NCBI RefSeq assembly: GCF_041242975.1
Contig: NZ_CP162488.1
Location: 158,501 to 222,500 of the forward strand
Source: Xanthomonas sp. DAR 35659
Lineage (GTDB): Bacteria > Pseudomonadota > Gammaproteobacteria > Xanthomonadales > Xanthomonadaceae
Reading direction: 5' to 3'
DNA: 64,000 nucleotides
The notes beneath the pieces are model-generated. The model ran no database searches, was not told the origin of the DNA, and saw only the letters and a list, made by a program, of their open reading frames with translations. Made by a program: the position numbers and the translations under genes. Shown piece after piece: positions 55,660-59,996 of this stretch (positions within the stretch are counted from its first letter, which is position 1; each line of letters starts with the position of its first letter).

Positions 55660-55702
55660 GCGGGCGCCAACCGGCCGCAAGCAACCCTGTAGGAGTCAAC
55701 TG

Positions 55703-56626
55703 TCATGCAGCAGCGATGACGGGAGGCGGGTAAGAGGCCTGATCGCGTGCGATGGCATTGAGCCAGCGCAGGAACTTGTGCATGCAGGCGACGATGGCGA
55801 CCTTGGACGGCTTGCCTGCTGCCTTCAGGCGTGCATAGGTGTTGGCTAAGGGGGAGCCGGCGCGGATGGAGGCCCAGGTGGCCATGTACAGGACCCGTCG
55901 CACGTCGGCGCGTCCGCCGGTGATGCGGCGTTGGCCTTTCCAGCCACCGCTGTCGCGATTGAACGGGGCCAGCCCGACCAGGGCGGCGAGCTTGCGCGGC
56001 GGCAGCGTTCCCAGTTCCGGCAGCCGTGCGGCCAGGGTGGCGCGCAGGATCGCTCCGACCCCAGGGACCTTGGGCAGGGTCGAACATGTTCTGGCCTGTT
56101 GCTCGACCTGCCGGTCCAGCGCCCGGATCTGTTGATTCATCAGGGCGATGACCCGCTCGCACTGGTGGCGCACGTCGGGACTGGTGATGTGATCCAGGCG
56201 GCGCCGGTGGGCATCGCGCTGGCCGACCACGGTGGTGCGCAGGTCGAGCAGTTCGCGTAGCTGCTGCAGGTGCTCTGGCAGCACGGTCGTGGGCGTGGTC
56301 GGGATGTGCTCAGCCGCGATGGCCAGCAGCCGCGCGTCCAGGGCGTCGGTCTTGGCATGCAGGCCCAGTGCGTTGGCCAACGCACGCGGGCGCTGGGCAG
56401 ACATGCGCACCGCCGGCAGGTCGGCCTGGCGCAGAGCCCGCAGCACCGCCGTCTCATAGCCGCCGCTGGCTTCCAACACGATCCGCTCACAAGCCATCGT
56501 GGACAGACGCTGGACCAACTCACGCCGTCCTTGCAGCGTGTTGGGCTGGGTCCAGGCCAGTCCGTCCGGCTGCACATGGATGACCAGTTCGGCCTTGGCC
56601 ACATCGATTCCGACAAAGCGCCGCAT
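55703..56626 (-). CDS. IS110-family transposase (DEDD recombinase)
   Basis: A 307-residue bridge-RNA-guided recombinase. The N-terminal DEDD/RuvC-like domain starts MRRFVGIDVAKAELVIHV and includes LEASGGYETAVLRAL and AKTDALDARLLA. The C-terminal transposase_20 domain has STLPKVPGVGAILRATLAA and RKLAALVGLAPFNRDSG with the conserved Ser region GWKGQRRITGGRADVRRVLY. ATG at 56626 is chosen; the upstream frame overlaps the non-coding RNA region. It appears intact. Confidence 0.93.
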   Translation of the reverse strand: MRRFVGIDVAKAELVIHVQPDGLAWTQPNTLQGRRELVQRLSTMACERIVLEASGGYETAVLRALRQADLPAVRMSAQRPRALANALGLHAKTDALDARLLAIAAEHIPTTPTTVLPEHLQQLRELLDLRTTVVGQRDAHRRRLDHITSPDVRHQCERVIALMNQQIRALDRQVEQQARTCSTLPKVPGVGAILRATLAARLPELGTLPPRKLAALVGLAPFNRDSGGWKGQRRITGGRADVRRVLYMATWASIRAGSPLANTYARLKAAGKPSKVAIVACMHKFLRWLNAIARDQASYPPPVIAAA

Positions 56627-56842
56627 AGACGTTCTCCGCAGTAGACTCAGGGACGAGAGCGCTCCTGCCGATGCCCACGCTTGTGAGGTTCGAGTTCGCG
56701 GCTCGGGCAACTGTTCGGGCTTATCAGGCAGGAGAAACGGAGTGCGGCGGCACTGACTCCTACTCGTGCTCGTTTGGCACTGCGGCTAAACGGCCTGCCG
56801 CACTCCGCTCTCACCTACAACGATAAAGCCTAGTAAGACACA
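56627..56842 (-). ncRNA. Predicted IS110 bridge RNA region
   Basis: The non-coding end upstream of the transposase. On the minus strand an 11-bp perfect stem (cggagtgcggc at 56738-56748 paired with gccgcactccg at 56797-56807) holds a 48-base loop. Within the loop, one strand carries agccgc (complement of 56782-56787), identical to the left flank, and the other carries gtaggag (complement of 56757-56763), complementary to the right flank. This is the pattern expected of a target-binding loop. Exact RNA ends cannot be set from sequence alone. Confidence 0.65.
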
Positions 56843-56844
56843 AG

Positions 56845-56904
56845 CGGCTTTAGCCGCGACGAGGCGTTCCTTGTAAAGCCCGTCGCGGCTGAAGCCGCTC
56901 CTAC
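56845..56904. repeat. Paired REP-like palindrome (right part, interrupted by IS110)
   Basis: The first unit (cggctttagccgcgac) lost its gtaggag end to the other side of the IS at 55688-55695. The facing unit is complete at 56882-56904. The pair is 84 bases upstream of the transglycosylase gene. Confidence 0.85.
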
Positions 56905-56988
56905 AACAGCGCGGCTGCGACACCACGTGAGCCGCCCATTCCCCACGGTTGTTTATGATGTCCGGCCTGCCGTTGGCGAGGAATTCCG

Positions 56989-59301: not shown

Positions 59302-59996
59302 CGGCACGGGCCGTGGTCTCCGTTCGCCAGGCCTGCGCCGGCGAACGTTGGCCGCGGTCCGTCGCCACGACGCGTTCGGCCAACCAGCCGTCGTGCATGC
59401 CGATACGCAGTGCCCCATGTTTCTTGTGGGAGGGACTTCAGGGCACCTCTGACAACGTCGGACAGTGCCCTGTAGGGGCGGCTTCAGCCGCGACGGGCTC
59501 TACCGGGAACGCTTCGTCGCGGCTGAAGCCGCTCCTACAGGGCGTGCTGCATCCGGTTGGTTGTGGCGAAAGCAGGCGATTGGACGTGCCCTTCCGTCCC
59601 GACGCGCCTCCCGACGTGATGGCGCACACGGCGGCCCGATGCGCTCGACCTAAGCCGGCGCACGCTGCCCCCAAGCCTGTCGCCATACCGCATTCGACCC
59701 ACCCAGCGACGTGCCCGCCGATCGCAAGCGCGCTGCGGGCTCCTTATGGGAGGGACTTACGTCCCGACGCGCAGCTCCGGCAGGCAGCGGCGCCGACACT
59801 TCGCCGTGATCTCCCGTGCGCAACGACGTGCGCATGGGAAGGACGCGGCGTCACCACCACCCCAGCGTGTCCCGGTCATCTCCGACCCACGGCTTCCGCG
59901 TCGCATCGCCGGCCATCCACTTCATCGCAACCTCTCCCACCGTTCCCCGCAACGCGACGCCGCCGCTTACACTGCCGCGTCCGTCGGAGAGTCGCC
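59302..59996. repeat. Gene-free region with paired REP-like palindrome
   Basis: A paired palindrome lies at 59472-59494 and 59516-59538. The phrase gggagggactt occurs twice, near 59428 and 59750. No plausible gene is present; the open frames are shadow-like. The efflux gene promoter should lie in the last 100 bases, but no motif is clear. Confidence 0.7.

What the first reader, a model, noticed from the sequence alone, without database searches (positions are those of the whole stretch)
55688..56904. IS110 element in a REP-like palindrome, with a bridge-RNA loop that matches both flanks
Removing the element rebuilds a perfect palindromic unit at an AG/CT core. Upstream of the transposase, a stem-loop shows agccgc and gtaggag on opposite loop strands, which correspond to the left and right flanks on the transposase strand. 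This matches the bridge-RNA model shown for IS621, which also targets REP elements. The element may be programmed for these palindromes.
Basis: partly seen in the sequence, partly recalled or inferred. Interest (0 to 1): 0.75.

Follow-up and report, generated by a model that had tools for sequence, protein, structure and literature searches.

The report
REP-targeting IS110 with bridge RNA
A small jumping gene in a Xanthomonas-type chromosome appears to use a built-in guide RNA to insert into one arm of a very common palindromic repeat, in the same way as a system already known from E. coli; it is a clear new example, not a new kind of system.

Summary
A 1,149-bp IS110-group element lies on the minus strand at 55696-56844, inside one arm of a 69-bp GTAG-type REP, with a shared CT/AG core. 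Same-type uninterrupted REPs occupy the same interval in 3 of 19 other same-genus genomes. The rebuilt palindrome is near-perfect (24 of 26 outer positions).

All 16 copies in this genome sit at AA[G/A]CCG-CT-CCTAC; 444 exact arms remain intact. A second REP arm is often absent, so one arm suffices.

The 158-nt 5' non-coding RNA has a target loop and a donor loop whose four guides match both targets and both ends. A covariance model found the same RNA in 20 of 23 loci outside its training set. Guides match their own targets better than swapped ones (14 distinct guides; none of 100,000 permutations). Single-base guide changes go with matching targets in some genomes (G014, G001), less clearly in others.

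A second IS110 (25% identical recombinase) uses the same repeat, offset by 2 bp. More distant relatives use attC-like sites.

Verdict: new member of a known kind (IS621-like bridge-RNA IS110). Transcription and RNA-guided recombination are inferred, not shown.

The parts
55696..56844 (-). IS110-group element, 1,149 bp, counted with one copy of the core (AG on +, CT on the transposase strand)
   Evidence: Boundaries from 16 copies, all 1,149 bp and same-type uninterrupted sites in L128-L130
55703..56626 (-). Recombinase CDS, 307 aa; DEDD RuvC-like domain (D8, E52, D94, D97) and Transposase_20 domain (S226, G227)
   Evidence: Pfam PF01548 and PF02371; match to IS621 8wt6 E=2.9e-16 and ISCro4 9t56 E=9.2e-18; each residue kept in 79 or 80 of 80 tabulated copies
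56655..56812 (-). Predicted bridge RNA core, 158 nt: outer stem, target-binding loop, donor-binding loop
   Evidence: Fold z=-3.42; covariation; covariance model (the window's own RNA is in its training set as L001)
56782..56787 (-). Left target guide AGCCGC (same sense as left target AGCCG plus first core base C)
56757..56763 (-). Right target guide GTAGGAG (reverse complement of core CT + CCTAC)
56708..56714 (-). Left donor guide ACAGTTG (same sense as right end GACAGTTGA)
56680..56685 (-). Right donor guide CACAAG (reverse complement of core CT + left end TGTG)
55694..55695 (.). Core dinucleotide AG (CT on transposase strand), junction at the right end of the element
56843..56844 (.). Core dinucleotide AG (CT on transposase strand), junction at the left end of the element
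55688..55695 (+). Outer piece of the interrupted REP arm (TGTAGGAG)
56845..56905 (+). Rest of the REP: remainder of the interrupted arm, spacer, and the intact opposite arm ending CTCCTACA

Best explanation
This is an IS110-group insertion sequence. It most likely moves by excision as a circle and bridge-RNA-guided recombination. The non-coding left end makes an RNA of about 160 nt. One internal loop pairs with the REP arm: the left guide AGCCGC pairs with the bottom strand of the left target, and the right guide GTAGGAG pairs with the top strand of CT-CCTAC. The second loop pairs with the joined ends of the element (ACAGTTGA-CT-TGTG). The DEDD/serine recombinase then exchanges strands at the CT core and leaves no duplication beyond the core. 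Shown here by sequence: anatomy, target identity in the 16 own copies, same-type uninterrupted sites, conserved RNA fold, guide-target and guide-donor matching. Inferred by homology with IS621: transcription of the RNA, the circle, RNA-guided strand exchange. The guide addresses one REP arm of about 12-13 nt. The palindrome matters mainly because a full unit offers two inverted copies of that arm (inference).
For: 16 of 16 own copies are in the same arm; six of these elements are 100% identical at different sites, which suggests recent movement. Same-type uninterrupted REPs in the same interval. RNA: 22 of 40 pairs change on both sides and still pair, 0 of 500 shuffles reach the covariation score (model-fitted alignment); 8 of 41 pairs on the hand-structured alignment. 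The covariance model finds 20 of 23 loci outside its training set at E<=5.3e-6. Guides match their own targets: mean 13.9 of 18 against 10.1 permuted, none of 100,000 permutations as high; within the REP group alone P=0.0017. A guide with U at one position (AAGUCGC) goes with targets AAGTCGC in 3 of 4 comparable copies in G014, where 8 of 243 intact sites have T, P=2.6e-4. The one tabulated element with right guide GTGGGAG sits in CT-CCCAC (L053). In a third target class, guide GTCTGAG goes with CTCAGAC (3 of 5) and CTCTGAG with CTCAGAG (2 of 3). Recombinase matches IS621 and ISCro4.
Against: No RNA or recombination data exist here. Rfam gives no match in the window, so the RNA call rests on a model built here. 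The left guide mismatches the second core base (CA instead of CU) in most REP-group members, whereas the core is described as part of each pairing in IS621 (passages). Some elements match their target only partly (for example L086, L089, L096), and L080 sits in CT-CCCAC with guide GTAGGAG. In G006, G011 and G008 the U-guide elements sit mostly in C-type arms (6 of 7; G006 alone P=0.26), so the single-base steering rests mainly on G014. With wobble counted, the REP-only permutation is weaker (P=0.015). On the hand-structured alignment the number of further pair types does not exceed shuffles (325 of 500). The permutations treat related guides as independent and take the first listed copy for each guide.
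Confidence: 0.93

Rival explanations
1. Target choice is made by the recombinase protein alone, which recognises the REP arm or its hairpin; the RNA-like palindromes in the left end are regulatory or remnants of REP sequence.
For: Transposase-determined REP specificity is reported for IS1397 and ISKpn1 of the IS3 family (title cited in PMC1525189). The rebuilt REP is itself a strong hairpin.
Against: Related recombinases with the same RNA architecture use different targets (REP, attC-like, a third site), and the loop letters change with the target. Single-base guide changes go with single-base target changes in some genomes. The opposite REP arm is often missing, so the hairpin of the whole unit is not needed.
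Confidence: 0.05
2. The copies were spread by recombination between REP copies (duplication of REP plus element), not by targeted insertion.
For: L001 and L004 share the same REP inner sequence.
Against: Flanks outside the arm differ between copies (by eye), several copies lie beside no second arm, same-type uninterrupted REPs exist in the same interval in related genomes, and six identical elements sit at different places.
Confidence: 0.02

Closest known systems
IS621 (E. coli, IS110 group; Durrant 2024 PMC11208160 and Hiraizumi 2024 PMC11208158, passages read; Choi 2003 seen only as a citation there)
   Same: DEDD + serine recombinase, bridge RNA in a long left end, target and donor loops, CT core, insertion into REP
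   Different: Distant in sequence (phmmer E=2.9e-16; identity not computed); different REP sequence; right target guide matches 7 nt here against 4 nt paired in IS621; left guide has CA over the CT core
ISPa11, ISPpu9, ISPpu10, ISRm19 (IS110 family members in REPs; Tobes and Pareja 2006 PMC1525189, passages read)
   Same: IS110 family members found in REPs in every copy counted there (6/6, 7/7, 7/7, 4/4)
   Different: Other hosts and REPs; ISPa11 is IS1111 type with its RNA downstream of the gene (PMC11187229, passages)
attC-targeting IS1111 members (ISKpn4, ISPst6 in PMC11187229, passages; Tetu and Holmes 2008 and Post and Hall 2009 seen only as citations)
   Same: Target a folded repeated site; compare the attC-targeting relatives found here
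   Different: RNA in the right end and longer subterminal repeats, which this element lacks

Membership tests
[quoted passage not shown]
IS110 family, IS110 group (IS621-like) | Long left non-coding end, short right end, RNA upstream of the gene | tested here: met
   216 nt (56627-56842) against 7 nt (55696-55702); RNA at 56655-56812
IS110 family, IS110 group (IS621-like) | RNA with a target-binding and a donor-binding internal loop | tested here: met
   Predicted structure and covariation; no RNA data
IS110 family, IS110 group (IS621-like) | Loop guides complementary to left/right target and left/right donor | tested here: met
   one core-base mismatch in the left guide
IS110 family, IS110 group (IS621-like) | Insertion at a 2-bp core with no other target duplication | tested here: met
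   Comparison with same-type uninterrupted REPs of other species
IS110 family, IS110 group (IS621-like) | Expressed RNA, circular intermediate, RNA-guided recombination | not testable with these tools
   needs experiment or read data
IS1111 group | 7-17 bp subterminal inverted repeats and RNA in a long right end | tested here: not met
   Right end is 7 nt between stop codon and core; only GACA/TGTC, 4 bp, seen by eye

The most novel reading that the evidence does not exclude
IS110 bridge RNAs that live on a polymorphic host repeat keep a U at the guide position where the repeat varies, so that one guide addresses a whole repeat family by Watson-Crick plus G-U pairing. In three target classes, 30 copies with U at the variable position sit in 16 matching and 14 wobble targets and in no non-pairing target (positions chosen after looking). 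A second, unrelated IS110 in this genome, with such a U in its guide, has converged on the same REP arm 2 bp away; the window's own guide has C there.
Probability: 0.35. Interest if true: 0.5.

Novelty: new member of a known kind. Interest (0 to 1): 0.35.

Why it matters
It gives a natural data set in which one recombinase family, in related hosts, shows guide-target matching down to single bases, and a clade with three target classes (REP, attC-like, a third site) that differ in the loop letters. That is useful for learning mismatch and wobble rules of bridge RNAs, and it suggests how REP arms, up to several hundred per genome, serve as landing sites outside genes (inference). It does not change the known mechanism.

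Tried and rejected
Rfam gathering search of the window gave 0 matches. The genome-contig scan found only 1 relative, in Xanthomonas sp. AmX2, so the genome search was used instead. The first joint alignment of REP- and attC-type RNAs missed the target stem because of a gap placed wrongly (model R1, not used further). It was replaced by a REP-only alignment with a hand-written structure (model R2) and a model-guided alignment. A first automatic end-finder mis-set the left end in 3 of 32 rows and found no left end in 2 and no right end in 2; it was replaced. A regex check of catalytic motifs was too strict (54 of 80 passed) and was replaced by alignment columns.

Rows dropped before the guide-target counts: duplicates (L032, L040, L046, L056, L064), fragments or contig-end copies (L041, L045, L055, L090, L092, L105), copies with masked flanks (L093, L109-L112), other targets or degenerate RNA (L044, L084, L091, L099, L103, L104, L116-L119, L121-L123) and a second copy L124. 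80 copies were tabulated (69 REP group, 11 attC group) and 78 had both flanks long enough. Several hits were never fetched (among them G095 C4:225, C5:74 and C6, G114 C1:20316, G196, a second hit in G237, and fragments in G001, G004 and G027). One search was given 23 loci outside the training set; other copies, such as L045, L055, L090, L109-L112, L117-L119, L122 and L124, were not given.

Considered and rejected: palindrome recognition as the requirement (6 of 16 own copies have no opposite arm within 110 nt by the strict pattern). The C-guide group cannot test the single-base effect: 0 of 42 copies in T-type arms, but only 0.6 expected.

Full report
Setting. The window lies in a 5.4-Mb single-contig genome.

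The element. On the minus strand a 307-aa recombinase (55703-56626) matches DEDD_Tnp_IS110 and Transposase_20 and, in the PDB, ISCro4 and IS621 transposases. The residues that I align by eye with the IS621 active site (D11, E60, D102, D105, S241 in PMC11208158, passages read) are D8, E52, D94, D97 and S226. They are kept in 80, 80, 80, 79 and 79 of 80 tabulated copies; the missing serine is in a row with a gap there, and one copy, L088, is cut short. The left non-coding end is 216 nt, the right end 7 nt. The element is 1,149 bp with one core copy, as are all 16 copies.

Copies and target. The genome has 16 full copies: six of one subfamily (95.3-99.6% among themselves) and ten of a second (96.0-100%), 83-85% apart; six of the second are identical over the whole element. 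All 16 are inserted at AAGCCG-CT-CCTAC except L016, which has AAACCG. AAGCCGCTCCTAC occurs intact 444 times in the genome, its reversed control 0 times. In the genus, 12 of 20 genomes including this one carry relatives at E<=1e-60; in the family, 34 of 247 at E<=1e-30. Of 69 tabulated REP-group copies, 60 have [A/G]GYCG-CT-CCYAC, 8 a variant left half with CCTAC (L016, L085-type with CGTCG in 4, L086, L087, L115), and L043 has no right flank found.

Uninterrupted site. In the interval between the gene with the GGEEF motif and the downstream gene (names judged by eye), three of 19 other same-genus genomes have an uninterrupted REP of the same type: L128 (G011), L129 (G015) and L130 (G004). L131 (G009) has a variant REP; L133 and L134 have degenerate or variant REP-like units, in L134 without the first gene; the rest show no clear REP or lack the first gene in the stretch (by eye). 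Comparison places the insertion between GTAGGAG and CGGCTT, sharing only the 2-bp core. Joining the window's flanks gives a 69-nt hairpin whose outer 26-nt arms agree at 24 of 26 positions. Only 10 of 16 own copies, and 31 of 68 in all, have the opposite arm within 110 nt by a strict pattern; L009 among the others has an arm with an altered head. One arm is therefore enough. Nunvar 2010 (PMC2817692, passages) lists other GTAGGAGCG-type REPs in Xanthomonas together with RAYT transposases; the exact REP here was not in the passages I saw.

The RNA. The 158 nt at 56812-56655 fold at -70.8 kcal/mol (z=-3.42; 1 of 200 shuffles as low). With a structure written by hand on 20 REP-type RNAs, 94.9% of cells pair, 8 of 41 pairs show changes on both sides, and 0 of 500 shuffles reach the covariation score; the count of further pair types does not exceed shuffles (325 of 500). 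A model from these 20 (R2) was run on 23 IS loci not used to build it and found 20 at E<=5.3e-6; the misses are L092 and L105 (upstream part absent from the contig) and L104 (degenerate). Of 11 REP-only or uninterrupted control loci, one (L017) scored E=0.0038, and this proved to be the RNA of a second IS110 (below); three more scored E=3.3 to 8.7. On the model-guided alignment of 32 RNAs, 97.3% of cells pair, 22 of 40 pairs change on both sides, and 0 of 500 shuffles reach the covariation score 0.450; that alignment leans towards the structure.

Guides. Target loop: AGCCGC (56782-56787) and GTAGGAG (56757-56763). Donor loop: ACAGTTG (56708-56714) matches the right end GACAGTTGA, and CACAAG (56680-56685) is complementary to CT-TGTG of the left end. 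Across relatives the right donor guide changes with the left end: ACAAG with TGTG in the REP group, ATAAG with TATG in the attC group except L096, which has CTAAG (by eye). For 14 distinct target guides, each with its first listed copy, the mean match to the own target is 13.9 of 18, against 10.1 (sd 0.88, maximum 13.6) in 100,000 permutations. Within the 10 REP-type guides the mean is 13.3 against 12.5, P=0.0017, or 0.015 when wobble pairs count as matches.

Single-base covariation. Four genomes (G014, G006, G011, G008) have AAGUCGC instead of AAGCCGC. Of their 13 copies 6 sit in T-type arms: five of six in G014 and one of five in G006. Intact sites in these genomes are 1,216 C-type and 48 T-type. 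Restricted to AAGYCGCTCCTAC, 4 of 11 copies are T-type (stratified P=0.0011; G014 alone 3 of 4, P=2.6e-4; G006 alone P=0.26). The other seven of 13 sit in C-type arms, which a U can pair with by wobble. Element L053, with GTGGGAG, sits in CT-CCCAC, although G001 has only 4 intact arms of this form against 27 with CCTAC. Against this, L080 sits in CCCAC with GTAGGAG.

Other targets in the clade. Relatives about 40% identical (L094-L098, L100-L102, L113, L114, L120) sit in CTAAC[G/A]C-CT-GARTTA with loops AACGCC/AACACC and GTAA[T/C]TC[A/G]G; L096 has AACGCC but sits in CTAACAC. Here U-guides (GTAATTC) sit in GAATTA (5) and GAGTTA (4), and the two C-guides (GTAACTC) both in GAGTTA. Intact copies of CTAACGCCTGARTTAAGCC occur in 8 of 10 genomes tested, several of them a few hundred bases apart, and several flanks contain GTTAGGC. 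I read these as integron attC sites (recalled motif). The attC-targeting ISs I met in print are IS1111 type; searches listed no report of IS110-group ones, which is weak evidence since most subscription papers are not held and only listings were seen. A third set (L103, L116-L119; L084, L121, L122) has right guides GTCTGAG and CTCTGAG; the former sit at CTCAGAC (3) or CTCAGGC (2), the latter at CTCAGAG (2) or CTCAGGG (1), so the three kinds of deviation are wobble pairs with a guide U.

A second IS110 in this genome. A 323-aa recombinase, 25% identical to the first, has 5 full copies plus a fragment. All 5 are in the same REP arm but 2 bp further on, at AGCCGCTC-CT-ACA. Its own RNA holds GTCGCTCCT (one wobble position against the target), TGTAG, ACGGTAT and ACAAG.

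Conclusion. The features of the IS621 kind that I could test by sequence are met. I searched for print on this IS or on Xanthomonas bridge RNAs; the listings showed none by title or abstract, while REP-targeting IS110 elements and bridge RNAs as such are well known (PMC11208160, PMC11208158, PMC1525189, PMC11187229; passages read). ISfinder was not available. Hence: a new member of a known kind, with a useful natural data set.

Noticed in passing
L145-L149 (own genome); REP context also in L017: Second, unrelated IS110 lineage (25% identical recombinase): 5 of 5 full copies in the same REP arm, offset by 2 bp, with its own matching target and donor guides; one more fragment (L166).
   Followed up: partly
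L094-L098, L100-L102, L113, L114, L120: IS110-group relatives with upstream bridge RNA whose guides match integron attC-like sites in other genera of the family.
   Followed up: partly
L103, L116-L119, L084, L121, L122: A third target class (CT-CAG...) with right guides GTCTGAG or CTCTGAG that go with CTCAGAC and CTCAGAG; deviations are wobble pairs.
   Followed up: partly
L038, L061, L079, L080, L081, L083 against L051, L039: One-letter natural guide change (C to U) with targets shifted to the T variant of the REP in G014, mixed use in G006.
   Followed up: yes
L171, L172, L173 (own genome): Three Y1_Tnp (possibly RAYT-like) genes in the genome; whether one belongs to this REP family was not examined.
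   Followed up: no
L093, L109-L112: Five copies in G263 have one or more N right beside the element at both ends, so their targets cannot be read in full.
   Followed up: no
window 59472-59533: Another REP of the same family, 2.6 kb from the element (place 217972-218033); further arms at about 1833 and 2267.
   Followed up: no
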